Origin: Methylobacterium terrae | GTDB taxonomy: Bacteria > Pseudomonadota > Alphaproteobacteria > Rhizobiales > Beijerinckiaceae | Direction of reading: 5' to 3' | Assembly: GCF_003173755.1 (NCBI RefSeq) | Contig: NZ_CP029553.1 | Coordinates: 5,584,001 to 5,648,000 of the forward strand | DNA length: 64,000 nucleotides | In this document: one piece after another, positions 6,610-47,286 of the stretch | Position numbering within the stretch: position 1 is the stretch's first letter | Layout of the letters: each line of letters opens with the position of its first letter | Position numbers and translations under genes: made by a program | Notes under the pieces: model-generated | Told to the model about the DNA's origin: nothing | The model's database searches: none | Seen by the model: only the letters and a program-made list of their open reading frames with translations

Positions 6610-7073
6610 GACACACCATAATAGAATTGTGGTCCAAATCCGATGTTAATCACAAATATAATCGGTAGAAAGATTTTTATTTTTTATATCATAGGGAACG
6701 AATTCGATGGAAAGCACATAATGATATTGGATATTTTTACTTGTACGATTCGTACTTAGGATCGTTGCGACAGATCAATGCGGCTTGATCGCGCGATGAG
6801 CCCCGCATGCAAATCGCGCTGGCCTACTGCCCACTCGACCAGACGGGCGGTGCTACAGACGGAGAGACTAGACACCGGGCCGAAGGTCCCTTAGACCTTC
6901 CACCAAGGGGCACTGAGCCCTTGGTGGATGAGCGCATTGATCAGCCGCGCGCTCAATGACCGGACTACCGCACGCTGAACGGCCGGGGTCGCCCGTGTCG
7001 CAGCACGTCGCATCGCATTGGCGGCACCCCGAACAACTGACGCGCTTCAGGCGCATCAGCGGAGCCATATGCG
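6610..7073. other. Intergenic region, AT-rich then hairpin-bearing
   Basis: Positions 6610-6770 are AT-rich and probably hold the promoter of the ribbon-helix-helix gene. Positions 6780-7073 return to normal GC and carry two adjacent hairpins listed separately. The longest reading frame here (6868-7290, minus) has a Pro/Gly/Arg-rich composition with no domain and is rejected. Confidence 0.5.
6882..6927. repeat. Two adjacent perfect hairpins
   Basis: The first hairpin has 7-bp arms GAAGGTC (6882-6888) and GACCTTC (6894-6900). The second has 10-bp arms CCACCAAGGG (6900-6909) and CCCTTGGTGG (6918-6927), so they share base 6900. There is no T run on either strand. The position, about 370 bases past the tape measure stop, could mark a factor-dependent terminator of the tail operon or a recombination site of the element. 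Which of these is not clear from sequence. Confidence 0.55.
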
Positions 7074-13886: not shown

Positions 13887-14008
13887 GGCGAACCAGTGCG
13901 GGACGGTAGCCTATCCGGTCGCCCCACCGCCTGGCTGTGCAATCAGCGTGTCGTCGTCGCAGTGTTGGAGGAGATGCGCGGTTGGATCGCGCATCGTATT
14001 GGCTCGGG

Positions 14009-14950: not shown

Positions 14951-15165
14951 ATCATCTTCCCCTACTACTATCCACGAGCGTGCCGAGCAGGCGCACCCGC
15001 CGAACCCATCTGACCGCGCCGCGTTGTCCTAGGGACACTCCCCGAAATAACCCCGGGATTTAGAGGGTATTTCAGGGGTATCGGTGCTGACCAGGGCGGC
15101 CTGAGGCCTGAGCCGCCCTGAGCACCCGTCGCACCGTTGTTAGGCTCCAAGCCGGTGTACCTGCG

Positions 15166-15843
15166 TCAGGCTCCGAGCCGCGACAGGGTCCGGCTCACCG
15201 CCATCGGGGACCAGGTGGTGCCCCGCGGCGGGGCGATGCCGGCCCGGTTCAGGCCAGCTGCCAGGGAGCGGAGGCTGGTGGCCCCGGACGCGCGCAGCTC
15301 GCCGATGATCGGGGCGAGGTCGGCGGCGCGGCTCTCGGCCCGGGCCTGGACCGCGGCAACCCCCTTGGCCTTGGCCTCAGTGGAGAGGGTGGCACCCCGG
15401 TCGCCCCCGAGCTTCACCCCGCGCGCCTTCGCTGCCGCGAGCGCGGCCTTGGTGCGGGCCGAGATGGCGCGGCGCTCCTCCTCCGCGACCATGGCCATCA
15501 CCCCGACCGTGAGCCGGTTGGCGTTTGGCATGTCGGCGGCCACGAACTCGATGCCGGCCTTCTCCAGCCCGAGAAGGAAGCCGGCATCGCGGCTGAGCCT
15601 GTCCAGCTTCGCGATGAGGAGCTTGGCCCCATAGACCCGGCACGCCGCAATGGCGCGCTGGAGCTGAGGCCGGTTCGTGTCGGACTTGCCGCTCTCCACC
15701 TCCACGAACTCGCCGGCCACCGTCCAGGCCCCGCCGTTCAGGTAATCCGTCACCGCCCGCTGCTGAGCCTCCAGGCCAAGGCCGCTGTCGCCCTGCCGCT
15801 TGGTGGAGACGCGCAGGTAGGTGACGAACTTGCCCTGAGCCAT
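15166..15843 (-). CDS. Serine recombinase (resolvase/invertase family)
   Basis: This 225-residue site-specific recombinase has its nucleophilic Ser in FVTYLRVSTKRQGDSGLGLE near the N-terminus. The family motif ACRVYGAKLLIAKLDRLSRD follows, then the catalytic-domain end EEERRAISARTKAALAAAKA. The C-terminal part is a helix-turn-helix (SLRSLAAGLNRAGIAPPRG). The ATG at 15843 gives the standard resolvase N-terminus; the in-frame extension to 15867 is not needed. A 32-bp inverted repeat lies directly upstream (15,859-15,890) and is a candidate binding or crossover site. It may mobilise a cassette or resolve cointegrates in the element. Confidence 0.9.
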   Translation of the reverse strand: MAQGKFVTYLRVSTKRQGDSGLGLEAQQRAVTDYLNGGAWTVAGEFVEVESGKSDTNRPQLQRAIAACRVYGAKLLIAKLDRLSRDAGFLLGLEKAGIEFVAADMPNANRLTVGVMAMVAEEERRAISARTKAALAAAKARGVKLGGDRGATLSTEAKAKGVAAVQARAESRAADLAPIIGELRASGATSLRSLAAGLNRAGIAPPRGTTWSPMAVSRTLSRLGA

Positions 15844-15858
15844 GGCCGAACCTCTGTC

Positions 15859-15890
15859 ACGAACCAATCATCGAACGTCGATTGGTTCGT
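15859..15890. promoter_or_regulatory. Perfect 11-bp inverted repeat at recombinase promoter
   Basis: The arms ACGAACCAATC (15859-15869) and GATTGGTTCGT (15880-15890) are separated by 10 bases that contain a further partial dyad (TCGA..TCGA). It lies 15 bp before the recombinase start. Its length and symmetry fit a resolvase subsite or an autoregulatory operator. It is a single site rather than the usual three-part res array. Confidence 0.65.
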
Positions 15891-16083
15891 GGCAGGAATG
15901 GCAGAGGCTGACCTTGTTGGTCAACCAAACAACGACACGAACAAATCAGACAAAGTGCTTGACATCCCGGTTTATCGGGGATGGGTGGGTGTTTTTTTAC
16001 AGATACTAACGCACCTCAATAAATACTATCCGCCATCTATGCTTCCGGAAAATTTTGGTTTTAGCTGGATGATAACAGCGCCT

Positions 16084-16362
16084 TTACGCTTCGCGGTCCA
16101 CGTAGGTCATCCATCCATCTAGGCCAGCGTATTCCTTCGCCATTCCGTCCAAGAGCACGATACGTTGCTTCTCAGACAGCCGATCCACAATCATCATCAA
16201 GAATGCCTGCTGACGGGGATGGTCGCTGTCCGACATAATCATGTCGTACACGTCGCGAAAGCCTTCATTCTTGGCTTCTGCGTTTCCTCGACTGGTGGTC
16301 ACTTGCGCGATGTCGTAGACTTGGCCCTTCAATGCTTCGTACAGGGGAATGTTTAGAGCCAT
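16084..16362 (-). CDS. Small hypothetical protein
   Basis: This 92-residue acidic protein begins MALNIPLYEALKGQVYDIAQ and contains EGFRDVYDMIMSDSDHPRQQ and MMIVDRLSEKQRIVLLDGMA. It is predicted all-helical and soluble. The frame stays open upstream to 16917, but that part is the shadow of the next gene, so the ATG at 16362 is chosen. It is the last gene of a run of element genes on the minus strand. No family is recognised. Confidence 0.6.
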   Translation of the reverse strand: MALNIPLYEALKGQVYDIAQVTTSRGNAEAKNEGFRDVYDMIMSDSDHPRQQAFLMMIVDRLSEKQRIVLLDGMAKEYAGLDGWMTYVDREA

Positions 16363-16409
16363 AGGACCTACCCGCACCAATACCTCGATGCAGGATCGCA
16401 CAACCTGGC

Positions 16410-16907
16410 CTAGGCGGCCAGGAGCGAGGCGAGGTAGTCCCGGAACCCGGTCGGGGTGAAGGTCACGCCACCAGGGAGGCGGGGGCCGGCGGCGCGGGCA
16501 TAGAGGTGCGCCAGCTTCCGCACCTCGGCTGGGTCCGTCACCTCCTGCCCGAGGTCGCGCGCGAGGCTGAGCCGCCAGGTGGTGGGGGTGTCGAGCTGGT
16601 CCCCGCGCCGGGCCGCGAGCCAGCTGAGGATGTCGGACACCCGGTAGACCAGGGGCGAGCCCGACGCGCGCCGGAACCAGGCGGAGGGTAGAGGAGCCGG
16701 TGTGAGGCGACGGTTGCGCCACACGTTCCAGGCCCCGGGGTCGGCCCCGATGGCGGTGGTGACGGCGGCGGAGGTGACCGGAGACCAGGAGAACACGCCC
16801 GGGAAGGTCACCTCGGAGGCCGCCGGCAGGTCCCTCAAGGGCGTCGCCGGCTTCCTCATAATAACCGCAGCGGGCCGCACTGAGCCGAAGCTGTTGTCCT
16901 GGATCAT
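16410..16907 (-). CDS. Putative DNA-binding protein of the integrated element
   Basis: This 165-residue protein has a central segment (WRNRRLTPAPLPSAWFRRAS, then SPLVYRVSDILSWLAARRG) that resembles excisionase/MerR-like DNA-binding proteins, where a basic helix is followed by a phrase such as YRVSDILSWL. The start at 16907 sits two bases after the stop of the HNH gene, with GGAGGATGAG as ribosome site inside that gene's end, so the two are translationally coupled. The role is unknown. Confidence 0.6.
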   Translation of the reverse strand: MIQDNSFGSVRPAAVIMRKPATPLRDLPAASEVTFPGVFSWSPVTSAAVTTAIGADPGAWNVWRNRRLTPAPLPSAWFRRASGSPLVYRVSDILSWLAARRGDQLDTPTTWRLSLARDLGQEVTDPAEVRKLAHLYARAAGPRLPGGVTFTPTGFRDYLASLLAA

Positions 16908-16909
16908 TA

Positions 16910-17587
16910 CTACTCATCCTCCAGCAGTTCGGGGTTATTCTGCCTCCAACTCAGGTAACCGGACCACGCTGCCTGTGTTAGCGATAAATCAAGTCCGTAC
17001 TCTTCCGAGGCAGCGCTTGGCCCAAGCTCCACAAGCGGTTGATGTTCTATCAGCTTCTCGCACACCTCTGCGAAGCTCATCCCTGTACCAGAAGTAGCCG
17101 CCTCAACGGCCGGGGCCTTGTCTAGAATTGATGTGGCATTACTCTTCATATCCACAAGTTCTCGTTTGGACACCACGCCTTTGAGCTGGTTGGGGGAAGG
17201 TCCTTTCACAGTCACATGGTAGGGAGAAACGCACCGGGGATTGACGCAACGGTCAAGCGCCGGCACGTCGTTGATCGGCGTGCAGGTGATAATAGAGTAT
17301 ATAGCCCGGTGCGCCGCAACTTTGCCACCGTATTTCGGGTCATGAACTTGAGGCAGAGCGCGATCTGCTTGGTGACATCCCGCAAAATTGCGGTGACCGC
17401 TGTATGTGTCAGAAACTTTGTACGGTCTGTACCTCAATTTGGCCTGCTTGGTGAAGCCGGTCCACTCCCAGCACTCCACCTTCTTCGAGCCCCGGACAGT
17501 GATTTTTTTCCTGATCCGCTCCGGCAAGTCGTTGAATTTGTACGATTTTATGAGCGGATCGATCGATTTTTCTGGGTGGGGGTACAT
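16910..17587 (-). CDS. HNH-type nuclease-like protein
   Basis: This 225-residue protein has the layout of HNH_3-type homing or element nucleases: VECWEWTGFTKQ, then KVAAHRAIYSIIT, then ALDRCVNPRCVSPYHVTVKG. The last motif corresponds to the family's H-x-C-x-N-x2-C-x-NP-x-HL, but the first His is Asp-Arg and NP is SP. The metal site may therefore be altered. The C-terminal 80 residues are acidic and unrecognised. A ribosome site AAGGAA precedes ATG 17587, a TATATA -10 box lies further upstream, and a perfect 19-bp palindrome sits at 17,622-17,640. It overlaps no gene upstream, so this is probably the first gene of a two- or three-gene unit. Confidence 0.6.
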   Translation of the reverse strand: MYPHPEKSIDPLIKSYKFNDLPERIRKKITVRGSKKVECWEWTGFTKQAKLRYRPYKVSDTYSGHRNFAGCHQADRALPQVHDPKYGGKVAAHRAIYSIITCTPINDVPALDRCVNPRCVSPYHVTVKGPSPNQLKGVVSKRELVDMKSNATSILDKAPAVEAATSGTGMSFAEVCEKLIEHQPLVELGPSAASEEYGLDLSLTQAAWSGYLSWRQNNPELLEDE

Positions 17588-17621
17588 GCCATTTCCTTCT
17601 TATATATTTTTGTACATCCCA

Positions 17622-17640
17622 GGGATGTACGAGTTTTCCC
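17622..17640. promoter_or_regulatory. Perfect 19-bp palindrome upstream of HNH gene
   Basis: GTACATCCC (17622-17630) and GGGATGTAC (17632-17640) flank a single central A. The site is 35-53 bp before the ATG at 17587, next to a TATATA-type -10 box read on the minus strand. It would overlap the -35 region, the classic place for a repressor. The small HTH proteins in the same element are candidates to bind it. Confidence 0.65.
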
Positions 17641-17774
17641 CATAAGCTGACTTACCCTTCCCCCCACCCCTATTAGAGAGGAGAAAAGAGAAGAAAGAAG
17701 TAAGATATATCTTATTTTTCAGTTTCTTAGATCGTGAACCCCCACCCATAAATCGCGTGCGCTAGCCGAGCCAC
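17641..17774. other. AT-rich intergenic stretch
   Basis: This polypurine/AT-rich stretch lies between the palindrome and the next gene's stop and holds no gene. It contains repeated GAAAAGAGAAG-like tracts. It is probably part of the promoter and terminator region. Confidence 0.4.
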
Positions 17775-18203
17775 CTACGGTCCCGCAGCCGCCCCCGCGC
17801 GCTTCTGGTCGAGCATGCGTAGGTGACGCCGTTTCTCCGCTCGCCAGAGCCGCGCGACCCTCCGGGTCAATACGTAAAGTTCGCTGTCTCTAGGCGCATA
17901 GTCGATTACAAAATCCATGAATGCGGGAGACATGCCTGTAAGATCTGCGTAATGCTTAGGCGGGAAAAGTCCAAACTTATCTCTATGATAGTAAATTGCA
18001 CCAAGCGAAGATAGTATCATGCGGGACTGCCATCGATTTTTTAGTTCAAATTTTGCATATTTTGTCATTCTACCAAGTATAAGAGCACTACAACGATCGA
18101 CATTTATGAAAGCTTCCGAGGATTCTGTGAGTGGCGCGTCTGGTCCCCGTAGACTATAACCGGTCTGTAGAGAAGGAAGGCGGCTTGAACGCTTAGCGGC
18201 CAT
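17775..18203 (-). CDS. Hypothetical protein of the integrated element
   Basis: This 142-residue basic protein begins MAAKRSSRLPSLQTGYSLRG. GGGAGGA in front of the ATG at 18203 supports the start. It contains FELKNRWQSRMILSSLGAIY and LTRRVARLWRAEKRRHLRML. It may bind nucleic acid, judging from charge only. It overlaps the 3' end of the HTH gene upstream by 11 bases, so the two are likely coupled. Codons in the middle part are AT-rich. No family is recognised. Confidence 0.6.
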   Translation of the reverse strand: MAAKRSSRLPSLQTGYSLRGPDAPLTESSEAFINVDRCSALILGRMTKYAKFELKNRWQSRMILSSLGAIYYHRDKFGLFPPKHYADLTGMSPAFMDFVIDYAPRDSELYVLTRRVARLWRAEKRRHLRMLDQKRAGAAAGP

Positions 18204-18363
18204 GGGTTTGTCCTCCCGACAGCAGGCGATTGAGCGCGTCCACGGGGATCAGAACCTTGCGTCCAACGGTCACTCGAGGAAGGTGCTGATCGATGAACCG
18301 AAGGCTCCAGCCGGTCCGATCGCGAACTTGCTGCCTGGTCAGGAAGTTGTTGAGCGCGTCCAC
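18193..18363 (-). CDS. Excisionase/MerR-like small helix-turn-helix protein
   Basis: This 56-residue protein has the pattern LTRQQVRDRTGWSLRFIDQH, then RVTVGRKVLIPVDALNRLL, which is the HTH_17 excisionase form. The GTG at 18363 is chosen because AGGAG lies 9 bases upstream; a longer frame starts at a GTG at 18411. It probably acts as a recombination directionality factor or small regulator for the integrase of this element. Confidence 0.75.
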   Translation of the reverse strand: MDALNNFLTRQQVRDRTGWSLRFIDQHLPRVTVGRKVLIPVDALNRLLSGGQTHGR

Positions 18364-18558
18364 GAAGAATTTCTCCTGTTCCGAATGACACCGACGTATG
18401 CGTCGATGCACTCAGATTCCAGAGAATGCACTTCAGGCTTCCCGGGGAAATCAGGGGAAGCCTCCGTGAACTCCAATGCGTTTGGCGACAACGTCGGCAC
18501 TGCCCGAACTGGGACCCTGCCCTCGGCAGAGCACCCGACGTTGCTGCACCGCCGCCGA

Positions 18559-18831
18559 TCACAGGCCTATGCCTCGCCGTAGCCGCTCTATCGCAGCCTC
18601 GAGCGGCGACCCTCGCTCGTCCTCGCCCATAATCATCCTCCTTTCCGGGGAGCTTTGCTTTTGCGCGAGTTGGGGGGCGGGCATGGGCCTGACGACCGCA
18701 TCGTGGGCCGTGGGCGCCCGTTGGGGCTCAGGATGCGGTATGGGCGCCGAACCGGCGCCGGGCTCCACGGGCCGCCTGAGCCCGTGCATTGGCCGCCGTG
18801 AACGCGACCGCGAATTTCTCGCCGCCGCCAA
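18559..18831 (-). CDS. Doubtful small hypothetical protein
   Basis: This 90-residue frame lies 11 bases downstream of the AlpA-like gene. The Arg/Pro/Ala-rich N-terminal half looks noncoding, while the end (GEDERGSPLEAAIERLRRGI) resembles a real small helix. If real, translation may begin at the internal ATG near 18633. It is listed with low confidence because the flanking genes are tightly spaced. Confidence 0.3.
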   Translation of the reverse strand: MAAARNSRSRSRRPMHGLRRPVEPGAGSAPIPHPEPQRAPTAHDAVVRPMPAPQLAQKQSSPERRMIMGEDERGSPLEAAIERLRRGIGL

Positions 18832-18842
18832 GATGTGGACGT

Positions 18843-19058
18843 TCAGCCGCCACAGCGCCGGCTATTGATCCACTCGTCCAGGTCATCGCGCCGAATGCCG
18901 ATACGGCGCTCGCTCAGGCGCAGGATGCGCGGGCCGCACCCCGCCTTGACCAGCCTGCGCATGGTCGAGACGGAGAGATTGGCGGCCTCGCACGCGGCGT
19001 TGAAGTTGATGACAGGGGCGTTCGGGCGCGCTTCGCCCGCCGGTACGGTATGCGGCAC
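18843..19058 (-). CDS. AlpA-type phage transcriptional regulator
   Basis: This 71-residue protein has an excisionase-like DNA-binding domain: FNAACEAANLSVSTMRRLVK, then GPRILRLSERRIGIRRDDLD, then EWINSR. AlpA-family proteins usually activate the adjacent integrase or excision genes. The GTG at 19058 is chosen because GGAGA precedes it by 7 bases; the open frame extends to 19130. It sits just downstream of the integrase on the same strand, which fits that role. Confidence 0.78.
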   Translation of the reverse strand: MPHTVPAGEARPNAPVINFNAACEAANLSVSTMRRLVKAGCGPRILRLSERRIGIRRDDLDEWINSRRCGG

Positions 19059-19331
19059 GGCATGTCTCCAGCGTTGGAAGAAGCTGGGGATCGGTCTGCC
19101 GGGATCAGCAGCCTCTAATCTGACCCGCACCCAGCGTGCGCGCCCAAATTGTGATTGCGAGCTTGAACTGAGGCGACACTAGACAACCAAAAGCGGTCAC
19201 GCAAGCTTATAAGCTGCCACCAGATGTCATTTCTGGTCCAGGCACATCCTTACGATGTGCTGTTCTGCGACTAGACATCCATTGCCGTTGAGAGTGGCTC
19301 TGCCATTGTGGCCCAGCACATCCCCGGCTGT

Positions 19332-19354
19332 GTGCCGGTGGTCCCCACCGGCAC
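19332..19354. terminator. Strong hairpin downstream of integrase
   Basis: GTGCCGGTGG (19332-19341) and CCACCGGCAC (19345-19354) form a perfect 10-bp stem with a 3-base loop, 15 bases after the integrase stop. A T-rich tract on the minus strand precedes rather than follows it, so it is not a standard intrinsic terminator. It could protect the mRNA end. Confidence 0.5.
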
Positions 19355-19369
19355 GACCTGAGAAAAAAT

Positions 19370-20587
19370 TTAAGCGCTCGCTTGGGGAGGAGCCTCCTCC
19401 CGCATCTCGCAAAGGCCAGCCACATGGGCGGCCCATAGGTCCAGGGCTGCCCGCTTTTCAACCGCGTAGGACGCTCTGTTGTAGACGCCCGCGACACCGG
19501 CCCGGGCCCCGGAGACGTGGTTCAGGATTGCCTCGATGATGTGCGGCGCGACCCCGAGCCGATCCGCCATCATCGTCGCGGCCGTCCGGCGCAGGTCGTG
19601 CAGGGTCCAGGGCGCCAGCGGCGTCCCCGCCTCCGTGAGCCGGCTGTCCAGCGCATTCTTGGCTCGTGACCAGCCGGAGAAGCCACCGGCCCCCTCACCA
19701 AAGACGAGCGAGCGGCCCTCGAGGCGTGGCGCCTCTCGCAGGATTGCCACCGCGGGAGCCGAGAGCGGAACAAGGTGCTCTCGATGGTTCTTCGCCCGGG
19801 CAGCGGGCAGGGTCCACAGGGCGGCGTCCAGATCCAGCTCCGTCTCAGCCATCCCGCCCACCTCCTCCCGGCGCTGGGCCGTAAGGATCAGCATTCGGAC
19901 GATGCGCCCATAGGCATCGTTGCGGCATGTCCCCCAGATCGCCTTCAGCTCGGCGTCGCTCAGGACACGCTCGCGCGTCTTCTCCTCGGCAGGCTTGTGG
20001 GTCCCGACTACCGGGTTGGCTTCCGTCAGCCCCTCCCCAATCGCCCACGCGAAGAGCGCCGAGAGAGCCGACCGGCTCCGGTTCGCGGACACCCCACCGC
20101 TGCTGTCGCGCAACTCCGTAAGCCTGGTGGCCACGTCGGCCCGCCGCACCTTATGCAACGGGAGGCCCCGCAGGGGCGCCCAATGCTTTGTCAGGTGGAG
20201 CTTGGTCTGATAGAATGTCCCGGGCTTCTGCCGGACCTCGCAGTGCTTCAGGTAGGCATCTGCAACGCTGCCGAGCGTGACAGCGGCAGCCTTTTTCGCG
20301 GCAGCCTTCTCGGCGTGCGGGTCGTTGCCGGTCAGGGCGTTGGCGAGAAGCGTCCGGGCCTGTCGCCGGGCCTCATCGACGCTAAGGGTGTCCACTGCAC
20401 CGATGCTGAGCTTCTTCGTAGCTCGCTGCCCAGGCACCCGGTACTGGACGACGTAGCGGCGGCTTCCCCCGGCACTGGCGCGGACGCCGAAGCCCTTGAC
20501 CTCTGCATCCCACAGGAACGCCTCAAGCTTGCCGGGCGGGACCGTCAGGGCGGCGACGGTCTGGCGGGTGAGGCGCTGCGCAGTCAT
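19370..20587 (-). CDS. Tyrosine-recombinase integrase of the island
   Basis: This 405-residue integrase has an N-terminal DUF4102-type arm-binding domain (MTAQRLTRQTVAALTVPPGK, then AFLWDAEVKGFGVRASAGG), a core-binding SAM-like domain (about 110-200) and a C-terminal catalytic domain. The catalytic residues are all present: Arg in LILTAQRREEVGG, His and Arg in WTLHDLRRTAATMM, His in ILNHVSGAR and Tyr in GVYNRASYAV. It is of the P4/CP4 type that uses tRNA 3' ends. It lies about 140 bp from the tRNA-Pro half-gene at 20,731-20,775, which is therefore the attachment site. Confidence 0.95.
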   Translation of the reverse strand: MTAQRLTRQTVAALTVPPGKLEAFLWDAEVKGFGVRASAGGSRRYVVQYRVPGQRATKKLSIGAVDTLSVDEARRQARTLLANALTGNDPHAEKAAAKKAAAVTLGSVADAYLKHCEVRQKPGTFYQTKLHLTKHWAPLRGLPLHKVRRADVATRLTELRDSSGGVSANRSRSALSALFAWAIGEGLTEANPVVGTHKPAEEKTRERVLSDAELKAIWGTCRNDAYGRIVRMLILTAQRREEVGGMAETELDLDAALWTLPAARAKNHREHLVPLSAPAVAILREAPRLEGRSLVFGEGAGGFSGWSRAKNALDSRLTEAGTPLAPWTLHDLRRTAATMMADRLGVAPHIIEAILNHVSGARAGVAGVYNRASYAVEKRAALDLWAAHVAGLCEMREEAPPQASA

Positions 20588-20730
20588 TTTCCGGAAGCCA
20601 ATCGGAAGCCACAGACCCGAATGCCTGTGGAATCAGGATACCGTTTCTGCGCTCTAAAAACTAGAGGTTCAGAGGGAAAATGACGCCGCTTGATGGCTTC
20701 CGGACACTTCTGAAAGCTCATCCTCGAAGA

Positions 20731-20775
20731 CTGGGGGACTAGGGGTCGGAGGTTCGAATCCTCTCGCTCCGACCA
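20731..20775 (+). pseudogene. 3' half of a tRNA-Pro gene (attachment site)
   Basis: Reading 5' to 3' there is an anticodon loop CTGGGGG (anticodon GGG, proline), an anticodon 3' stem ACTAG, a variable GGGTC, a T-arm GGAGG-TTCGAAT-CCTCT, an acceptor 3' strand CGCTCCG, a discriminator A and CCA. The upstream bases do not pair: the expected acceptor CGGAGCG, D-arm and 5' anticodon stem are all missing. It is therefore a partial copy left by site-specific integration into the anticodon/T-arm region. The complete gene should lie at the other end of the element, left of position 1. Confidence 0.85.
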
Positions 20776-21197
20776 TTCACATCAAGCATTGAGGCTTGGT
20801 TCTCGAGGGTGCCGGACCCTCGGCTTCCAAAACGGTTTGCAAGGTTCAGCGCTCCGAACGGGGCGCTTTTCGCGTTTGCGGGCCCGCCAGGCCGCCTTCC
20901 GGTGCTCGAAGAGCGGAAGACTCGAACAGCAGCAGACCTGCGCAGCCGCTGACGCAGAGGCCGGCCGCCTCGCCGAGGTGCCTCCCCCCGAGCGCCCTAG
21001 CCGATCCTGCTCCGGCAGGAGGTGGGAGCGTGGTATCGTCCTCACCCTGAATCGCGTGCTGGGTGCCCACGCACGACCTCTGGCAGGCCGGACGACCGGG
21101 TCACCCCGCCACGGCGCGCTGAAGCGGCAGGACCCTGGCAGGCGGGCCGAGGAAGGCCGGAACGAGTCGCGGAACCGCAAGGAAACGGTCTGGCGGG
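20776..21197. other. Chromosomal intergenic region after the island
   Basis: No CDS is convincing here; several frames are Arg/Ala/Pro-rich shadows. It contains a small hairpin (CGAGGGT 20804-20810, ACCCTCG 20816-20822) and the terminator listed next. The remainder to 21197 appears to be spacer between the tRNA locus and the chemoreceptor gene. Confidence 0.5.
20848..20870 (+). terminator. Intrinsic terminator, probably of the original tRNA-Pro gene
   Basis: AGCGCTCC (20848-20855) pairs with GGGGCGCT (20860-20867) around GAAC, with one wobble pair, and is followed by TTT (after the T of the stem, TTTT). It lies 73 bp after the CCA of the tRNA remnant, in the right orientation. It supports the view that chromosome resumes at 20,776. 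Confidence 0.65.
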
Positions 21198-22679
21198 CTA
21201 TGCAACGGCTTGCGAGACCGTTCGCACCTGCAGGGTGGCGCGCTCGACCTGTGCGACGGCACCGGCGATGGCGCCCACCCCCGTGGAGATCTCCTGGGCA
21301 CCACGAGAGGCCGTCTGCATCGATCCCGACATCTCCCGCGTCACCACGGCCTGCTCCTCGACTGCGGCCGCGATCGCCGCGGAGACCGCGTTCAGCTGCC
21401 GAATGGTCTCCTGGATCGTGCCGATGGCGAGGACGGCCTCGCCGGTGGCCGCGCGCGTGGCGTCGATCTGGGTGCGGATCCCTTCGGTCGCCCTGGCCGT
21501 CTGACCGGCCAGGGCCTTGACCTCGGCGGCGACGACGGAGAAGCCCTTGCCGGCCGGTCCGGCTCGTGCCGCCTCGATGGTCGCGTTGAGCGCCAGCAGG
21601 TTCGTCTGCTCGGCGATGGTCTGGATCAGGCTGACCACCTCGCCGATCTGCTGCGCCTGGCTGCTCAGGCCGGCGACGATCGCGCTGGTGTTCTGCGCCT
21701 GCGTCACGGCCGCCTGCGAGATCGCGGCGGCATGGGTGACCTGGTGGCTGATCTCGGCGACGGAGGCGGCCAGTTCCTCCGCTCCGGCCGCCACGGCCTG
21801 GATGTCGCCCGAAACGCGCGCGACGGCAGTGGCGGCCCGGCCGCTCTGCTCGGTGACGCCGCTCACCGCATTGCCGATGACGGCGAGATCGCCGGCGATC
21901 ACGCGACCCGCCTCGGCGCGACGTTGCCGCTCACGGACCCGAGAGGTGACGTCGGTGGCGAACTTCACGACGCGCAGGACCCTGCCATGTGGATCGAGGA
22001 TGGGGTTGTAGGTCGCCTGGATCCAGACTTCGCGCCGATCCTTGCCGAGGCGCCGATACTCGGCCGCTTGAAACTCGCCCGCCCGCAGGGCCGCCCAGAA
22101 CTCCCGGTAGGCGGGCGTGTCCCACTCGGCGGGATCCACGAACACGTGGTGATGCAATCCGCGAACGTCCTCGAGGCGGTAGCCCAGGGCGTCGAGGAAG
22201 TTCCGGTTGGCGTCCTCGATCGTCCCGTCGGGGGCAAAGGTGATCACGGCCTGGGACCGGTCGAGGGCAGCCAACCGTCCCTCCGCTTCGAGGGCGCGCA
22301 GCTTCCATTCCGTCACGTCCGTCGCGAGCGTGACGATCCTGGTGATGCGCCCGCTCCGGCCGCGCACCGGCGTGTAGCTCGCCTGGAGCCACACCTCGCG
22401 GTCTCCCCTCGCGAGGCGCAGGACCTCCGCCTTGTGGGACCGGCCATCGCGCAGCGTATCCCAGAACGCCCGATAGGCCGCCGTCTCCCGCTCGAAAACG
22501 GGCACGAACATGCAGTGGTTCATGCCTTTTATTTCGAATAATTGATATTCCATTATTTCCAGAAATTTGTCGTTCGCGGAAACGATCGTTCCATCCGGAT
22601 CGAACTCGATGATTGCTTGAGACCGGTGAATGGCGCGGAGCGTGGAAGGCGCGACGAAGCCATCGAGGTTGAACAACAT
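21198..22679 (-). CDS. Soluble chemoreceptor with two PAS domains
   Basis: This 493-residue methyl-accepting chemotaxis-type protein has no membrane segment. Two PAS/PAC modules come first (about 12-130 and 135-250, each with [11 protein letters not shown] or [15 protein letters not shown] cores). They may bind FAD or heme and sense redox or oxygen; this is inference. The signalling domain (about 260-493) carries the conserved hairpin tip ([18 protein letters not shown], then [20 protein letters not shown]). The layout resembles Aer-like or BdlA-type receptors that act in the cytoplasm. GAGGACGGAG before the ATG at 22679 supports the start. No che genes are adjacent, so it is an orphan receptor. 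Confidence 0.92.
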
Positions 22680-22851
22680 GCCAGCTCCGTCCTCATGACC
22701 GGCGCGGCGGATCCCTGCATCCGGTATCGTTGTGACCGAAGGGCATTGATGGTTTTTAATGATGATAAAAAGATTTAAATTCGATCATCGCAAATTTTGC
22801 ATCGCGTTTCGCGATCATGATATTCCGATGATCGAGCGCCCCCTGTCGCCG

Positions 22852-23904
22852 TCATCGCCGGCGCGTGTCCGTGGGCGTGCAGCCGAAGCGCTTGCGGTAG
22901 CGCTGGGTGAAGTCGCTGATATGCACGAAGCCCCAGCGACGCGCCACATCGGCGATCGATCGATCCGCATCGGCGTGGGAGCGAAGGTCCCCGTGGACCC
23001 GCTGCAGGCGCCTCTCGACGATGAAGCCCAGGGGCGTCGTGCCCAGCTCGCGCTTGAAGGAATTCTGGAGCGTTCGCACGCTGACGCCGGCGGCCGCCGC
23101 GATGTCGGCGAGCCTCAGGGGCTGCGCGAGATGGGCATCGATGAACGCCATGGCATCGCGCAATTGTGCCGACGAGGCCTTGAGGCTGTAGGATTCCGGC
23201 GCGGGCTGCCGACGAGGCCAGCACGACAGGAGCTGGTAGCTGACGATCTCTTCAAACAGCGTGAAGAACAGGTCGTGCCCTGGATCAACCTGCTGCAGTC
23301 GCCTGTGCAACCGCCGGAAGCACAGCAGGAAGGATTGCATGGCGAGCGTATCGACGGGCGCGACGGGTTCCAGGTCGGGGAACGCGGCATCGTCCTCGGC
23401 TTAGAGGGCCCGATGGCTGGCCAGGAGGGCGGACCGCGTGATCGTTCCGCTGATCGCCGCGAAATGGGCCGACGCCTCTTCGTTGCGCATGTCCTCGAAG
23501 GCGACGAACATGGCTTGGCCGGGATATCCGAGATGCTCGCTCGTCCGGCTCCGCCGGGTCATCCGGCCGCTGGTCACGAAGCGGATCGTGAACAGGTCGG
23601 CCTCGAGCTTCGGCACCGTGACGAAGCCCGTCCTCGTCTGCGTGAGCCACAGGCTCATCGAACGGCTTTGTCCACCCTCGACGGCCAGGTGTGGGCGTGT
23701 CTTGCGAAGAGCGTGGAAATCGACCGCGATACCGCCATGCTCGTTCAAAATCTCGAATGCTCGCGCGCTGTTCGATTGATGAGAAAAATAAGACTGCGGA
23801 CGCCACGGGACGGATTTTTTTGCATCTCCCGACATCCGCATCATGCTCTCACTGCAGAACGACCAGTCCATGCATAAATTACAGTATCGATTTGTCTGTT
23901 GCAA
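22852..23904 (-). pseudogene. AraC-family regulator interrupted by an in-frame stop
   Basis: Two pieces lie in the same minus-strand frame. Positions 23,904 to 23,401 encode the N-terminal AraC-binding-like region (LWLTQTRTGFVTVPKLEADL, ending ALLASHRAL). A TAA at 23,401-23,403 follows, and the frame continues AEDDAAFPDLEPVAPVDTLA into a complete C-terminal double HTH (QPLRLADIAAAAGVSVRTLQ, then SIADVARRWGFVHISDFTQR). Together they give the length of a normal AraC_binding_2 regulator. One base change explains the break. The downstream piece has its own ATG at 23,340, so a truncated DNA-binding protein might still be made. The real start may be an internal ATG near 23,835. Confidence 0.8.
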
Positions 23905-24197
23905 GCCAATAAATCTGAATATATTCCTTTATTGAAGAAAATTTCGTAGATTTTTGATATTCGGAGTGTGTTTCAAGCGCGAGTTCATCGGCCGGCGAGG
24001 CGTCGTCTCCGACGACATGGATCGCGTTGCGACGGGAAGAGCGGGACAGGCTGGAATCGGCCCCGAGGCCGATCACCGCCGTCCCCGGCAATCCCGGCGC
24101 TCGTCCCGGCGCTCGCCGGGGCTTTTCGCGAGGACCGCGAGGCCGGGCGCTTCGGCCGGCTCGCGGCACGGGGGCGTTCGTGCGACAAGCCCGGGCC
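23905..24197. other. Intergenic region between AraC pseudogene and methyltransferase
   Basis: This stretch is AT-rich near 23,905-23,970 and GC-rich after. The divergent arrangement makes promoters for both sides likely. The long minus-strand frame here (23,985-26,495) is a shadow. Confidence 0.4.
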
Positions 24198-39689: not shown

Positions 39690-39783
39690 TTTGTGCACCG
39701 CAGCGATGGCGTCGCGGCGGTGCAGCCCTCTTTGGGCGTTTCCTCCCTAGACTTCGGGCCGCCTCGCAAGGGCGGCCTTTTTT
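39690..39783 (+). ncRNA. Candidate small RNA with anti-Shine-Dalgarno loop and intrinsic terminator
   Basis: A stem of TGCACCGC (39694-39701) with GCGGTGCA (39717-39724) is followed by a short GCCC/GGGC stem. A single-stranded stretch then carries CCTCCC (39742-39747), complementary to Shine-Dalgarno sites. It ends with a terminator made of GGCCGCC (39757-39763) and GGCGGCC (39771-39777) and TTTTTT (39778-39783). This order (structured 5' part, exposed CCTCCC, intrinsic terminator) resembles the alphaproteobacterial trans-acting sRNA families. No protein frame explains it. The 5' end is not known; the transcript may begin as early as about 39,650. Confidence 0.55.
39757..39783 (+). terminator. 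Intrinsic terminator
   Basis: A perfect 7-bp GC stem with a 7-base loop is followed by six T, the best intrinsic terminator on the plus strand in this window. It ends the candidate small RNA rather than any visible gene. Confidence 0.85.
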
Positions 39784-39845
39784 CTGTTGCGCGGGACCCC
39801 GGCGCGGCGACACTGGCGGCGCGGCGCCCGACGGGAGAGGTTGGC

Positions 39846-43136: not shown

Positions 43137-43664
43137 TCAGGAGGCGAGGCCGTAGACCGCGTCGCCGAGGCGGCGGAAGACGCTGCCGCTTCCCTGGGTG
43201 CGCTTCCACAGCCGGGTGTTGAGGGCGGCGACCGGGTCGTGGCCCGGCAGGGTCAGGCCGCGGGCGGCGAGCTGCTCCCAGATCTCGGCGGCGTGCATCG
43301 GCCGCCCGGCCCCGGCCAGGATCTCTTCGGCCGCCTCGATCAGCCGGCGGCCCTCCCGGCGCGAGGCGGCGCCCGGGGGCTCGGATTCGGCCTGCGAGGC
43401 GGGACCGGGCTGGGCAGGAGCGGGCCGGACGGGTGCGGGATCGGGCGCCTGGGTGGGGGCCGGCGCGGAACGCGGAGAGGGATCCGGGCCCGGGGCCCGT
43501 GCCGGAGCGGGCGCGGGACGGACCGGTTCCGCGGCGCCCGGCCGGGCGAGCCGGCGGCCGAGATCGAGGTAGAGTTCGTACTCGGCGATGGCCCGGTCGA
43601 GGGCGGCGCGCTGACGCCGCAGCTCGTCCAGCCGGGCCTCCGTCTCCGCTTCCGACAGGAACAT
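43137..43664 (-). CDS. HARE-HTH domain protein
   Basis: This 175-residue protein has an N-terminal coiled coil (MFLSEAETEARLDELRRQRA, then AIAEYELYLDLGRRLA) and a long Pro/Ala linker. The C-terminal HARE-HTH domain at about 105-175 contains LIEAAEEILAGAGRPMHAAE, IWEQLAARGLTLPGHDPVAA and LNTRLWKRTQGSGSVFRRLG. HARE-HTH domains occur in DNA-modification and plasmid proteins and in RNA polymerase delta subunits. GGGGG upstream supports ATG 43664. GGAATATTCC lies directly upstream, so it may control itself. Confidence 0.75.
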   Translation of the reverse strand: MFLSEAETEARLDELRRQRAALDRAIAEYELYLDLGRRLARPGAAEPVRPAPAPARAPGPDPSPRSAPAPTQAPDPAPVRPAPAQPGPASQAESEPPGAASRREGRRLIEAAEEILAGAGRPMHAAEIWEQLAARGLTLPGHDPVAALNTRLWKRTQGSGSVFRRLGDAVYGLAS

Positions 43665-43675
43665 GATACCCCCTT

Positions 43676-43739
43676 GGAATATTCCATATTCCTGGTCGGA
43701 GCCGAAGGCCCTCAGGATGATCGAGAATAAGAATATTCC
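43676..43739. promoter_or_regulatory. GGAATATTCC palindromes upstream of the HARE-HTH gene
   Basis: A perfect 10-bp palindrome GGAATATTCC lies at 43676-43685, overlapped by a half-site GGAATATGG read on the minus strand (43684-43692). GAATATTCC occurs again at 43731-43739. They sit 12-75 bp before the start at 43664, where a promoter is expected. Related motifs occur at 43871-43881 (ATTCCATATTC) and 46350-46356 (GGAATAT). Confidence 0.55.
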
Positions 43740-44165
43740 ACCCGGGCGCAAGCCCTGTGTCGCTCATCCTGCCTGCGTTCCACGGTCGATGGGCGGCGAC
43801 GGGCCTGTGCCTCCCCGTCTCGGTGGGATCGGTCCCGACCTCGCCTCATTACGTGGAAAGAATTCGAAACATTCCATATTCTCGCAAGGGTTTCGCTGTC
43901 CCGCATTCCGTTGTCGCGGGATGGCATGGCGGTCCGTGACGCGACAGTCGCGAATGAGCGTATCGACCGAGCGGACGACCCTCTCCGAGGCCCCGCCCCT
44001 GTCCCGCACGAGAGCAGCGAAGAGCCGAATGAGACCCGGGAAAGGGCGGAGAGCACGGTCCACGACACTGGCGCAAAGCCTCGTGATCGTCAGGCTGTTC
44101 CCCTCTGCACCCTCATCCTGAGAGCCTGTTTGAGCGGGTTGTACTCGGTAAATCTGGTAGAATTT
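43740..44165. other. Noncoding region downstream of RepA gene
   Basis: No gene is recognised; all frames are shadows. It contains CCTCATCCTGAG at 44111-44122, a REP-like string that recurs at 44187-44198. The stretch lies upstream of the HARE-HTH gene and downstream of repA. Confidence 0.45.
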
Positions 44166-44211
44166 ATGGGATATCCCATCCTCTCACCTCATCCTGAGAT
44201 GAGAGGATGGG
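44166..44211. repeat. Overlapping palindromes and long hairpin
   Basis: ATGGGATATCCCAT (44166-44179) is a perfect 14-bp palindrome. Its right part overlaps a hairpin with 12-bp arms CCCATCCTCTCA (44175-44186) and TGAGAGGATGGG (44200-44211), whose loop contains CCTCATCCTGAG. The structure lies 228 bp after the repA stop. It may be a terminator, a REP-type element or a termination site for replication; the sequence does not decide. Confidence 0.5.
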
Positions 44212-44438
44212 AGGCGGTGCCGCCGCGGCCAGAAAGCCGTGTCGTGGACCGTGGGCGGAGAGGCTTCGCGATCAGGCGGTGCCCACCCCTTGCGCAGCAC
44301 CCCGACCCTGCCGCATGGCGAGGCCCGGGGTCCGGGGCGGACGACGAGACCGGCGGGAGCACGGGCGGCGTATCCGCTTTGCCTTCCGGTCCCTCGCGGC
44401 TCGGGAGCCCGGGGCGGCGCGTCGAAGCGGGAGCGCCC

Positions 44439-45530
44439 TCAGGCCGCCCCTGCCCCGGCGGCCTTGCGGCGCGTGGCTTTCGGCGGGACCAGGAGGGAGC
44501 CGGGATCGGTCGGCATCAGCTGCAGGCCGGCCTCGTCGAGGCTGATCGGCAGCTTCGGAAACACCTCCTTGACGTGGGCCACGTCGGCCTTGAAGGCCTG
44601 GCGGAAGCTCCTGAGGGAGGCGTTGTCGGCGCCGAACTGCTTGTGGACCGTGTCCCAGCTCAGGCGCAGCGGCCGCTGCAGGCTGCGCAGCCGGTAGCCG
44701 ATCCAGAACAAGAGGTCGAGCTTGCGCGCCGAGCCCGAGAAGGCGCGGGCGGCCCGGATGTCGACCGGCAGGGCGTGCTGGACCAGGTTGTCGTAGAAAT
44801 CCTGGTGGAACTGCACCGTCTTCGACCAGGCGATGCCGTCCTGGCCGCCGACGCGCCACAGGTCGAGCTGGCGGAACGGCGGCATGGTGATGGTCGAGGA
44901 GCGCGACTGCCCGTCCCACAGGCCGATCTGCATCGTGCAGGCGGCGAGCCGGTGCAGTTGCTCCTTGAACTGCCGGATCGTGCCGCGCTCGCCGCCGGTG
45001 ACGGCAAAGCCCATCTCGCGCATGAAGCCCGACAGGCTGTCGGCGACCTCGACCGTGGGGCTGCGCTGGCGCACCGCCTCGGTGCAGAGGTGCAGCAGCA
45101 CCAGCCGGGCCTTGGGGCCGTAGGGGAGCCCTTGCAGTTCCATCTGGCCGGTGGCCGGGTTCTTCAGCCGCCCGGCCAGGATGCTCAGCGTGTTGCGGCC
45201 GTATTCCCGGAAGAATTCGCGCTCGTCGCCGGGATCGCGGTACGGCAGCCCGCAGAGCGCCAGGACGGAATGGATGTGCTGGATCGTGTCCGGGGTGACG
45301 GGCTCGGCCTCGATCACCATCCGCACCGCGTCGCGCCGGCGCTGGTCGCGCCCCATCGCGGCGCGGGTCTCCTGCTTCCGGCCGGCCTCGGCCCGCTCGG
45401 CGTCGCGCAAGGCCTGGCGGTGGGCGATGTGCTCGACGATGACCGCGAACAGGAACCCGCCCCGGGCCGCTTCCAGCTCGGCCAGCAGGTCCTCGTCGTG
45501 GATCGCCGCGATCTTGGCCTCGATGCTCAT
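44439..45530 (-). CDS. repA: Plasmid-type replication initiator RepA
   Basis: This 363-residue protein matches the plasmid-encoded RepA family (RepA_C type). The key region is LVLLHLCTEAVRQRSPTVEV, ADSLSGFMREMGFAVTGGER and GTIRQFKEQLHRLAACTMQI, followed by LDLLFWIGYRLRSLQRPLRL. These proteins bind iterons and open the origin. The ATG at 45530 (MSIEAKIAAIHDEDLLAELE) is used; the frame extends to 45602. The iterons begin about 400 bp upstream. No frameshift is visible. The flanks (HARE-HTH on one side, mazG on the other) suggest a plasmid captured by or integrated in the chromosome. Confidence 0.85.
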   Translation of the reverse strand: MSIEAKIAAIHDEDLLAELEAARGGFLFAVIVEHIAHRQALRDAERAEAGRKQETRAAMGRDQRRRDAVRMVIEAEPVTPDTIQHIHSVLALCGLPYRDPGDEREFFREYGRNTLSILAGRLKNPATGQMELQGLPYGPKARLVLLHLCTEAVRQRSPTVEVADSLSGFMREMGFAVTGGERGTIRQFKEQLHRLAACTMQIGLWDGQSRSSTITMPPFRQLDLWRVGGQDGIAWSKTVQFHQDFYDNLVQHALPVDIRAARAFSGSARKLDLLFWIGYRLRSLQRPLRLSWDTVHKQFGADNASLRSFRQAFKADVAHVKEVFPKLPISLDEAGLQLMPTDPGSLLVPPKATRRKAAGAGAA

Positions 45531-46470
45531 GCCTGCCGGTGTCGCCTGGTGACGTTGGCCCGGTGCCGCGGCGCTCCCGCCGGTCTGGTCCCAAACCTTC
45601 ATGCACGATTCGGCTCCCGGGATTCCGTAGCCCCGGGCGGGTTATCCCAAGATTCCCACCACTCGTCCCCGTTATCCCGCGGGGATTCCGGCCCCGGCAT
45701 GCCCCGAGGCCGGCGACAGGCCCGTCCGGGCGCCCGGGAGCCCCGTGGAGGCCCGGATCGGGTTCGGAACGAGTCCGCACCCTTCCCCGCCCGGACGGGC
45801 CTGTGGGCCGCCTGTGCACGGCCCTGTCGGCCGGGCGGGACGAAGCCTGTGGCCGATCCGGGGCGAGCCCTGTGGCAAATCCTGTGGCGAGCCCTGTGGG
45901 TGGAGGGTGGCCGAGCCGGTGGAGACCCGGTGCAGGAGCGGCGCAGAGTTCGATACGGGGGCGGGTCGCGGGCCGGCGGCCCGCGCAGAGTTCGATACGC
46001 GAGGGCGGATCGAAACCGGCCGGATTCCGAGGGGTTGGGCGGGGCCCGACGCCGAATCCGATGCGCATCCACGCCGAATCCGATGCGCGAACCCCCGGAA
46101 TCCCCGCAGAATCCGATGCGCGTCCACGCAGAATCCGATGCCGATCCACGCAGAGCCGTATGCGCAACCACCCTGCAAGCCACTGGTGGGTCAGCGAAAT
46201 TCGCCCCTCCATATAATCCCCATAACTGACTCTCTGAGAATCCATGACTGATAAGTCACCTATAGGCCCGAGAGAGGGTTCGTTATGAAGAACGATCGGC
46301 CGCGCCTTCGGCGCCGATTGGATACAATCCCGCCGGTGAGGGAATTTATGGAATATGCGAGGAATTCCAGGCCCCTGCCCTGCCCGTCGCGGTGCTTCAC
46401 CGAGGCCGCTCCGGCGCCTATGAGCGGGGTCGGGCGCCGTCCGATGCGGCGCGCAGGAACCGGCCGGACC
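45531..46470. other. Candidate replication origin region
   Basis: This noncoding stretch lies between repA and mazG. It holds, from left to right, TTATCCC-type near-matches to DnaA boxes (TTATCCCAA at 45642-45650 and TTATCCC from 45672), a GC-rich section, seven iterons (separate entry) and an AT-richer stretch (46,195-46,300) of the kind where origins open. Frames that cross the iterons are repeat-driven and rejected. The mazG promoter should lie at its right end. Confidence 0.7.
45942..46165. repeat. Seven 17-bp iterons, consensus CGC(A/C)GAATCCGATGCGC
   Basis: Copies start at 45942 and 45984 (diverged, CGCAGAGTTCGATACG-type), then 46050, 46072, 46105, 46127 and 46149. The last five are spaced 22, 33, 22 and 22 bp, that is two or three helical turns, so bound proteins would sit on one face. 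The direct orientation and spacing are classic for RepA-bound iterons. The last copy is degenerate (CGCAGAGCCGTATGCGC). Confidence 0.88.
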
Positions 46471-47286
46471 ATGAGCACCACCCCGATCGCGCGGCTCCTC
46501 GGGATCATGGCCGCCTTGCGCGACCCGGAGGGCGGCTGTCCCTGGGACCTGGCGCAGACCCATGCCAGCATCGTCCCCTACACGATCGAGGAGGCCTACG
46601 AGGTCGCCGACGCGGTCGAGGGCGGCGACCCGGAGGAGCTGCGCGACGAGCTCGGCGACCTCCTGTTCCAGGTCGTGTTCCAGGCCCGCATCGCCGAGGA
46701 GGCCGGCACCTTCGCCTTCGACGACGTCGCCACCGCCATCGCCGACAAGATGGTGCGCCGCCACCCCCACATCTTCGGCGAGGTCCGCGGCCTCGATCAG
46801 GCGGCGGTGAACGCGCAATGGGCGACGATCAAGGCCGAGGAGCGCGCCGCCAAGGCGGAGCGCGACGCGGCCTCCGGCCGGCCGCCGGCGGAGGGGACTC
46901 TCGCCGGCGTGGCCCTGGCGCTGCCCGCCCTCGCCCGGGCGGAGAAGATCTCGCGCAAGGCGGCGGCCGTCGGCTTCGACTGGCCGGATGCGGGGCAAGT
47001 CGTCGCCAAGGTGCGCGAGGAGACCGACGAGGTGGCGCAGGCGCTCGCCGGGGAAGGCCCCGAGGCGGTGGCCGAGGAGATCGGCGACCTCCTGTTCTCG
47101 GTCGCCAACCTCGCCCGCCACGCGGGCGTCGATCCGGAGGAGGCCCTGCGGCGGGCGAACCTGAAATTCCAGCGCCGCTTCTCCGCGATGGAGGCGGAGG
47201 TGACGCAGGACGGCCGCACCCTGCCGGAGGCCGGCCTCGACGCGATGGAGGCGGCCTGGGCCGCGGTGAAGCGGCGGGAGCGCTGA
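46471..47286 (+). CDS. mazG: Nucleoside triphosphate pyrophosphohydrolase MazG
   Basis: This 271-residue enzyme hydrolyses NTPs to NMP and pyrophosphate and is thought to clear aberrant nucleotides and modulate stress. Two MazG domains are present: GGCPWDLAQTHASIVPYTIE and ELRDELGDLLFQVVFQARIA with the metal-binding E-x2-E/D pattern, then a second copy with VREETDEVAQALAGEGPEAV and EIGDLLFSVANLARHAGVDP. The length matches family members. The ATG at 46471 (MSTTPIARLLGIMAALRDPE) gives the normal N-terminus; the frame is open to 46285. Confidence 0.92.
   Translation: MSTTPIARLLGIMAALRDPEGGCPWDLAQTHASIVPYTIEEAYEVADAVEGGDPEELRDELGDLLFQVVFQARIAEEAGTFAFDDVATAIADKMVRRHPHIFGEVRGLDQAAVNAQWATIKAEERAAKAERDAASGRPPAEGTLAGVALALPALARAEKISRKAAAVGFDWPDAGQVVAKVREETDEVAQALAGEGPEAVAEEIGDLLFSVANLARHAGVDPEEALRRANLKFQRRFSAMEAEVTQDGRTLPEAGLDAMEAAWAAVKRRER

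What the first reader, a model, noticed from the sequence alone, without database searches (positions are those of the whole stretch)
44439..46300. Plasmid-type RepA and iteron origin next to core chromosomal genes
A full-length RepA-family initiator sits about 400 bp from seven iterons. Five of these are in a tight cluster spaced 22, 33, 22 and 22 bp and are followed by AT-rich DNA. Core genes (mazG, hfq, ntr, dusB) start just beyond. Either an iteron plasmid has been captured in the chromosome, or the chromosome keeps a second initiator system. No parAB genes are visible. An active second origin in a chromosome would be notable.
Basis: partly seen in the sequence, partly recalled or inferred. 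Interest (0 to 1): 0.72.

Follow-up and report, generated by a model that had tools for sequence, protein, structure and literature searches.

The report
Plasmid origin kept at chromosome terminus
A plasmid-style DNA replication start site, with its starter protein, sits near the end-of-replication region of Methylobacterium chromosomes and has been preserved almost unchanged across the genus, which suggests that it still does a job, although whether it fires has not been tested.

Summary
The window lies on a 6.16-Mb Methylobacterium chromosome. RepA (44439-45602, -) is an iteron initiator by family (RepA_C) and predicted fold (best PDB matches RctB and RepE). Seven iterons (45943-46164) and an AT-rich block (46200-46260) lie beside it. 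The set is kept: a RepA homologue in 59 of 59 genus genomes (58 of this type), dN/dS 0.07-0.28, and four or five iterons in the 22-33-22-22 phase in 67 of 69 loci. Five of five related plasmids show nearly the same phasing, so this is a captured plasmid origin under strong selection. In 15 of 15 measurable genomes it lies 19-568 kb from a Xer (dif-like) site and repA points toward that site. FtsK-motif (KOPS) polarity shows that it is not where replichores diverge. Firing is untested. Unexpectedly, the same chromosome holds a paralogous module (partition genes repA-repB, RepA_C initiator, iterons) at 0.69 Mb that lies at or near a KOPS divergence, plus three Xer sites with different centres, suggesting a three-domain, possibly multi-origin chromosome. 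Closest precedents are fused Agrobacterium and Vibrio cholerae chromosomes. New variant of a known kind; the multi-origin reading would be categorically new.

The parts
44439..45602 (-). repA1, RepA_C-family iteron initiator
   Evidence: predicted fold matches RctB and RepE; homologue in 59 of 59 genus genomes, 58 of this type; dN/dS 0.07-0.28 in 11 pairs
45943..45957 (+). iteron 1
45985..45999 (+). iteron 2
46051..46065 (+). iteron 3, first of the phased five
46073..46087 (+). iteron 4
46106..46120 (+). iteron 5
46128..46142 (+). iteron 6
46150..46164 (+). iteron 7 (degenerate in the window)
46200..46260 (.). AT-rich block, presumed DNA unwinding element, with CATATAA and AACTGACTCTCTGAGAA
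   Evidence: 67 anchored loci; AT-rich block at the same place in five plasmids
43137..43751 (-). HARE-HTH gene 3' of repA, a recurrent neighbour (64 of 73 loci)
46285..47286 (+). mazG ORF, divergent beyond the origin (true start may be near 46471; homologue in 47 of 73 loci)

Best explanation
SHOWN: the locus has all the sequence parts of a replication origin of the RepA_C iteron-plasmid type (initiator gene, phased iteron array, AT-rich block). It is fixed in Methylobacterium chromosomes, near a Xer terminus site wherever this could be measured, and kept under purifying selection for protein and iteron phase, with the AT block conserved. INFERRED: it descends from a plasmid captured before the genus diversified, plausibly by Xer recombination at dif, and repA was flipped relative to the array (arrays of the plasmids lie 3' of repA, this one 5'). 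INFERRED: RepA1 still binds the array and melts the AT block, making a secondary, late or conditional origin in the terminus region, while the hemE/parS oriC remains the main origin. The AT block is the chief reason to prefer initiation over mere binding.
Against: No replication data. KOPS do not diverge at repA1: they point along repA transcription on both sides (G019 and G026), so the site has left no FtsK-polarity mark. GC skew is near zero and uninformative. DnaA boxes are not consistent: a match of 8 or more of 9 in 29 of 67 loci. Nearness to dif could be inertia, since inversions about the ori-ter axis keep it. G035 is far (568 kb). L105 has lost the phase. G011 showed only the paralogue type. 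In Microvirga repA points away from dif in the two genomes measured, and GACTCTCT is exact in only 2 of 10 loci.
Confidence: 0.55

Rival explanations
1. The captured origin has been retooled for a job other than initiation: RepA bound to the array works as a fork barrier, a terminus anchor or a handcuffing device near dif, or only controls repA/mazG transcription.
For: Near a Xer site and one orientation toward it in 15 of 15 measurable genomes; no KOPS divergence.
Against: Keeping the plasmid oriV phase and a conserved AT block is not needed for a barrier. The array sits on one arm only.
Confidence: 0.3
2. A silent relic or a recently integrated plasmid, possibly still mobile, kept by chance.
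For: A plasmid origin inside a chromosome is often an integration scar.
Against: RepA1 type in 58 of 59 genomes, recurrent HARE (64 of 73) and mazG (47 of 73) neighbours, purifying selection, phased iterons in 67 of 69 loci.
Confidence: 0.08
3. The RepA1 locus is the main origin of the chromosome.
For: dnaA is far from hemE in the own genome, so the textbook origin position is not trivial here.
Against: hemE lies roughly opposite repA1 in 9 of 12 measurable complete genomes, with parS hits near it. KOPS converge on dif on the repA1 side of the chromosome in G019 and G026.
Confidence: 0.02

Closest known systems
RepA_C iteron plasmids of Alphaproteobacteria (parA-type gene, repA, iterons; Xanthobacter, Bradyrhizobium, Mesorhizobium, Aureimonas, Rhizobium; pVS1-like by recall)
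   Same: Homologous initiator (43-48% identity for these five), nearly the same iteron phasing in 5 of 5, AT block after the array
   Different: Array is 5' not 3' of repA; no parA found beside it; on the chromosome and kept throughout a genus
RctB/ori2 of Vibrio cholerae chromosome 2 and the fused strains NSCV1 and NSCV2 (PMC6284228: abstract and first part of Discussion read)
   Same: Plasmid-type initiator of the same fold; a second origin type on one chromosome, active in NSCV1 and silent in NSCV2
   Different: Rare strains there; here fixed genus-wide, near dif. A crtS-like site was not searched for
Dicentric Agrobacterium chromosomes (PMC12153318: abstract and passages read)
   Same: More than one origin system on one molecule; dif at KOPS (GGGNAGGG) convergence
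   Different: Two origins and one dif on a linear fusion made by homologous recombination. Own genome G000 shows three Xer sites with different centres, each near a KOPS convergence
Bartonella run-off replication origin (PMC2697382: abstract and passages read)
   Same: A second, foreign-derived origin kept on an alphaproteobacterial chromosome
   Different: Putatively phage-derived and tied to gene transfer agents; here plasmid-derived RepA and iterons
Pseudoalteromonas chromids (PMC7858055: outline, abstract and one results section read)
   Same: RepA-driven plasmid-type origin; ter near ori in the unidirectional ancestor
   Different: Separate replicon; an initiator reported there as without significant hits outside the genus

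Membership tests
Iteron-plasmid initiators (RepA_C / RepE-RctB fold) | Family profile over its cut-off | tested here: met
   PF04796 69.4 bits vs 26; no NCBIfam model matches
Iteron-plasmid initiators (RepA_C / RepE-RctB fold) | Two winged-helix domains like RepE/RctB | tested here: met
Iteron plasmid origin | Phased direct repeats next to rep, conserved | tested here: met
Iteron plasmid origin | AT-rich unwinding element beside the array | tested here: met
   (composition and conservation only)
Iteron plasmid origin | DnaA boxes | tested here: inconclusive
   matches of 8 or more of 9 in 29 of 67 loci, not at one place in those shown
Iteron plasmid origin | RepA-dependent autonomous replication | not testable with these tools
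   needs an experiment
Chromid / secondary chromosome | Own replicon separate from the chromosome | tested here: not met
   single 6.16-Mb contig carrying dnaA, hemE and mazG
Chromid / secondary chromosome | Own partition genes next to the initiator | tested here: not met
   window locus is flanked by HARE-HTH and mazG. The paralogue at 0.69 Mb does have RepA/RepB partition genes
Fused multi-origin chromosome (own genome) | Several KOPS divergences and convergences, dif at convergences | tested here: met
   in silico on 45 sampled pieces (898 kb of 6.16 Mb) of G000: 6 switches beat 2 by 38.8 log units, convergences bracket the three Xer sites. Divergence beside repA2 by the 8-mer, 0.26-0.61 Mb by a 7-mer
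Fused multi-origin chromosome (own genome) | More than one active origin | not testable with these tools
   needs marker frequency analysis
Bartonella-type run-off replication | Phage-derived helicase and gene transfer agent link | not tested
   -
Tus-Ter type fork trap | Polar fork arrest at the sites | not testable with these tools
   -

The most novel reading that the evidence does not exclude
Methylobacterium chromosomes are natural multi-origin chromosomes. The genus keeps a RepA1/iteron origin in the dif region, and in the M. aquaticum-like clade a second module (partition genes repA-repB, initiator RepA2, iterons) founds a replichore domain of its own, so one circular molecule carries three alternating origin and terminus domains, each terminus with a Xer site of distinct centre.
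Probability: 0.3. Interest if true: 0.93.

Novelty: new variant of a known kind. Interest (0 to 1): 0.76.

Why it matters
Bacteria are taught as one chromosome, one origin. The two-origin chromosomes that I know of in print are fused strains. A genus-wide plasmid origin preserved near the terminus, and a clade whose chromosome looks like three replicon domains, would give a stable natural system in which to ask how bacteria tolerate, time or silence extra origins, and how Xer/FtsK handles several termini. The first test (marker frequency plus repA deletions) is simple in laboratory-grown methylotrophs.

Tried and rejected
GC skew as a replication marker: weak and inconsistent in G000 samples and near zero in G019 and G026, also at fourfold sites corrected for gene strand; dropped. 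First iteron scan assumed that genome-search loci were oriented; they are not, so minus-strand loci were read on the wrong side; superseded on oriented named loci. First dif pattern (recalled consensus) was too far from the local one; the site was refined from six loci, then a pattern with a free centre was used. Third KOPS divergence in G000 (best interval 2.02-2.11 Mb): no Rep-like ORF was recognised by eye in two sampled 20-kb tiles; 2.02-2.10 Mb was not read. Another purine-rich word tried (GGGCGAGN) showed no domain pattern. Plasmids with closer RepA: none above 60% identity for either copy in PLSDB. Solved relatives by sequence: only chance-level hits. First structure job with 18 sequences was poor (pLDDT 51.5) and was not used. 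Mobile or relic plasmid and main-origin readings rejected as in the rivals. Four of 73 named loci, with repA at a contig start, were left out. A pVS1 relation is recalled, not compared by sequence.

Papers: PMC6284228, PMC7858055, PMC12153318, PMC4161386, PMC12147919 and PMC2697382 opened (parts named in the full report); all others search listings only. That this chromosomal locus is undescribed rests on ten searches of an open-access library, in which 'repa' also matches 'repair'; it may be in papers not held or in supplements, which I did not open.

Full report

GENUS-WIDE CONSERVATION. A RepA homologue is found in 59 of 59 genus genomes. In 58 the best match is of the window type (two, G046 and G050, are cut by contig ends); G011 showed only the paralogue type, 65% identical, which joins the paralogues in the tree. 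In the family sample 19 of 248 genomes match: 16 of the own genus, 2 of genus g32, and one distant g40; the answer does not say how many own-genus genomes were sampled. In g32, to which Microvirga pudoricolor (L063) belongs by its near-identical RepA, 10 of 48 genomes have it, with related arrays, complete in phase in 2 of 10. In 69 of the 73 named loci (four dropped: gene at a contig start) there are 462 iteron hits (12 or more of 15 positions) where 17 are expected. Five iterons sit in the 0-22-55-77-99 phase in 60, four of five in 7; L065 is off by one base and L105 has lost the phase; a further iteron 65-69 bases before is present in 65. In the 67 anchored loci an AT block follows (consensus CATATAA...AACTGACTCTCTGAGAA): TATA at that place in 67, GACTCTCT exact in 64, TGACTCTCTGA exact in 48; in Microvirga GACTCTCT is exact in 2 of 10. 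dN/dS is 0.07-0.28 in 11 pairs. A HARE homologue lies near repA in 64 of 73 loci and a mazG homologue in 47 of 73, some loci being cut by contig ends; mazG is missing throughout the M. brachiatum-like clade.

PLASMID ORIGIN. The closest plasmid RepAs are 45-48% identical, in Xanthobacter, Bradyrhizobium, Mesorhizobium, Aureimonas and Agrobacterium plasmids. In the five plasmids that I fetched iterons lie 3' of repA, with spacings 66-22-33-23-23 (Xanthobacter, after five more widely spaced copies), 66-22-32-22-22 (Bradyrhizobium), 66-22-32-22-23 (Mesorhizobium), 65-22-32-22-22 (Aureimonas) and 66-21-32-23-22 (Rhizobium). An AT-rich block with TATATA or TTATATA follows the array. The chromosomal array thus has the build of a plasmid oriV with repA on its other side. 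In the tree Microvirga (11 rows, 98/89) and the paralogue (4 rows, 100/100) group together (96/86); the 40 Methylobacterium RepA1 rows form a branch of modest support (83/74); plasmids fall outside on long branches whose places are unsure (midpoint root).

POSITION. hemE, near the origin in several Alphaproteobacteria (recalled), lies at about 0.9 or more of the half-chromosome from repA1 in 9 of 12 measurable complete genomes (some contig lengths known only roughly), with parS hits near hemE; G000, G025 and G035 are exceptions and G016 has the two on different contigs. A dif-like site TTCGCATAA-GATATA-TTATGGAA occurs once in 11 of 13 complete or near-complete genomes; G000 and G035 have other centres, and G019 has a second site with one arm mismatch. 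The best single switch of KOPS (GGGNAGGG) polarity falls within about 1.1 kb of it in G019 and G026, so it is dif in all likelihood. Distances from repA1 to the nearest Xer site, kb: G010 19, G025 20, G049 21, G007 22, G275 33, G020 34, G053 65, G039 98, G000 104, G008 133, G019 135, G018 296, G005 297, G026 311, G035 568. repA1 is transcribed toward that site in all 15 (from; in 6 of the 21 genus genomes searched the two were on different contigs). In six named loci dif lies 2-3 kb beyond the repA 3' end. KOPS beside repA1 run along its transcription on both sides: 34+/3- upstream and 38/5 downstream in the M. aquaticum-like loci, 211/55 and 87/38 in 'other', 99/25 and 91/46 in the M. brachiatum-like set, few in the rest; Microvirga L063 is opposite, 0/4 and 0/0. 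Two Microvirga genomes have repA about 390 and 560 kb from dif, transcribed away from it. So repA1 lies in one arm, in the terminus part of the chromosome, and is not a replichore divergence. Inversions symmetric about the ori-ter axis could keep this position without selection on it.

A SECOND MODULE AND A THREE-DOMAIN CHROMOSOME. G000 has a paralogue, repA2, at 688594-689724 (63% identical). Beside it are proteins of TIGR03453 and TIGR03454, the RepA/RepB partition proteins of repABC replicons. 3' of it is an array of different iteron sequence with the same 67-22-33-22-22 phase at 687258-687438, a CATATAA block after it, and further scattered copies on the other strand. Ten genomes of this clade (G035 and G038 included) have 2 to 5 Xer sites with different centres: G000 three on one contig (1.3936 GGTATC, 3.2520 GGTAGG, 5.5247 TTAGCA Mb), G035 three exact ones on one contig, G275 two on one contig, the others on several contigs. 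In 45 sampled pieces of G000 (898 kb, 269 KOPS) six polarity switches fit better than two by 38.8 log units (four: 26.3; eight add 4.2 more). With domain limits set at the Xer sites, each domain switches once from pointing down to pointing up: the convergence at 1.39 Mb is sharp, that at 5.52 Mb is bracketed by 5.48 and 5.60 Mb tiles, and that at 3.25 Mb only by 3.22 and 3.70 Mb. The divergence in the domain 5.52 to 1.39 Mb is placed at 688.5-693.2 kb, at repA2 (support interval 687.6-695.4), and stays there when overlapping hits are collapsed. Against this, a looser 7-mer puts it at 0.26-0.61 Mb, and the backward control pattern shows a weaker bias of the same sign in the six segments. The hemE domain is thinly sampled (30 sites, LLR 5.7) and one 10-kb piece at 5.0 Mb points the wrong way (0+/2-). 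The third divergence (2.02-2.11 Mb) has no initiator identified. G035 around repA1 shows mixed polarity at 6.40-6.46 Mb, then plus up to 7.07 and minus beyond its 7.09 Mb site. The repA2 domain of G000 also carries dnaA (at 478), so it is not a simple chromid. A fusion of replicons at Xer sites followed by gene shuffling is one reading; several inversions are another but would not by themselves put a Xer site at each convergence.

MECHANISM. Shown: parts, phase, conservation, place. Inferred: RepA1 binding, melting, initiation. The retained AT block favours initiation over a passive role. Lack of KOPS divergence means that firing, if any, is late, rare or conditional, or shorter-ranged than FtsK polarity records.

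COMPARISON. V. cholerae NSCV strains (PMC6284228, abstract and first part of Discussion) show that a plasmid-type origin on a fused chromosome can be active or silent. Agrobacterium dicentric chromosomes (PMC12153318, abstract and passages) have GGGNAGGG KOPS converging on dif and both origins active. In Pseudoalteromonas chromids ter2 moved from near ori2 to opposite it (PMC7858055, outline, abstract and one section). Bartonella keeps a putatively phage-derived second origin (PMC2697382, abstract and passages). The M. oryzae genome paper (PMC4161386, passages) puts the origin upstream of dnaA; its one word-start hit for 'RepA' appears to be the word 'repair', so the passages that I saw do not describe this locus. 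PMC12147919 (passages) was read for pVS1 background only. Ten library searches found no description of it.

Noticed in passing
G000:C1:687258-692190 (L127): Second RepA_C module with RepA/RepB partition genes and its own iteron array on the same chromosome, at or near a KOPS divergence.
   Followed up: partly
G000:C1 1393555, 3252027, 5524740; also G035, G275, G012, G015, G020, G038, G040, G053, G264: Several Xer sites with conserved arms and different 6-bp centres per genome; in G000 each lies near a KOPS convergence; several centres are shared between genomes.
   Followed up: partly
G005:C2, G026:C2, G049:C2 and C3: Smaller contigs (probably plasmids) carry one Xer site each, same arms, own centre.
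   Followed up: no
G000:C1:478 and 4421198: dnaA is about 1.7 Mb from hemE and the one parS-like hit; placing the origin at dnaA in this genus may be off.
   Followed up: partly
RepA1 homologues in public sources: Several are named 'pirin' or hypothetical protein, which may be why the locus went unnoticed.
   Followed up: no
window 39718-39793 (+): suhB/mmgR small RNA (RF00519), 67.8 bits.
   Followed up: no
window 44174-44212: Strong hairpin (18-nt arms, 94% complementary) downstream of repA, perhaps a terminator.
   Followed up: no
window 6001-7000 and 14001-24000: GC drops to about 0.50-0.71 against 0.69-0.80 in most of the window beyond 24 kb, suggesting foreign DNA.
   Followed up: no
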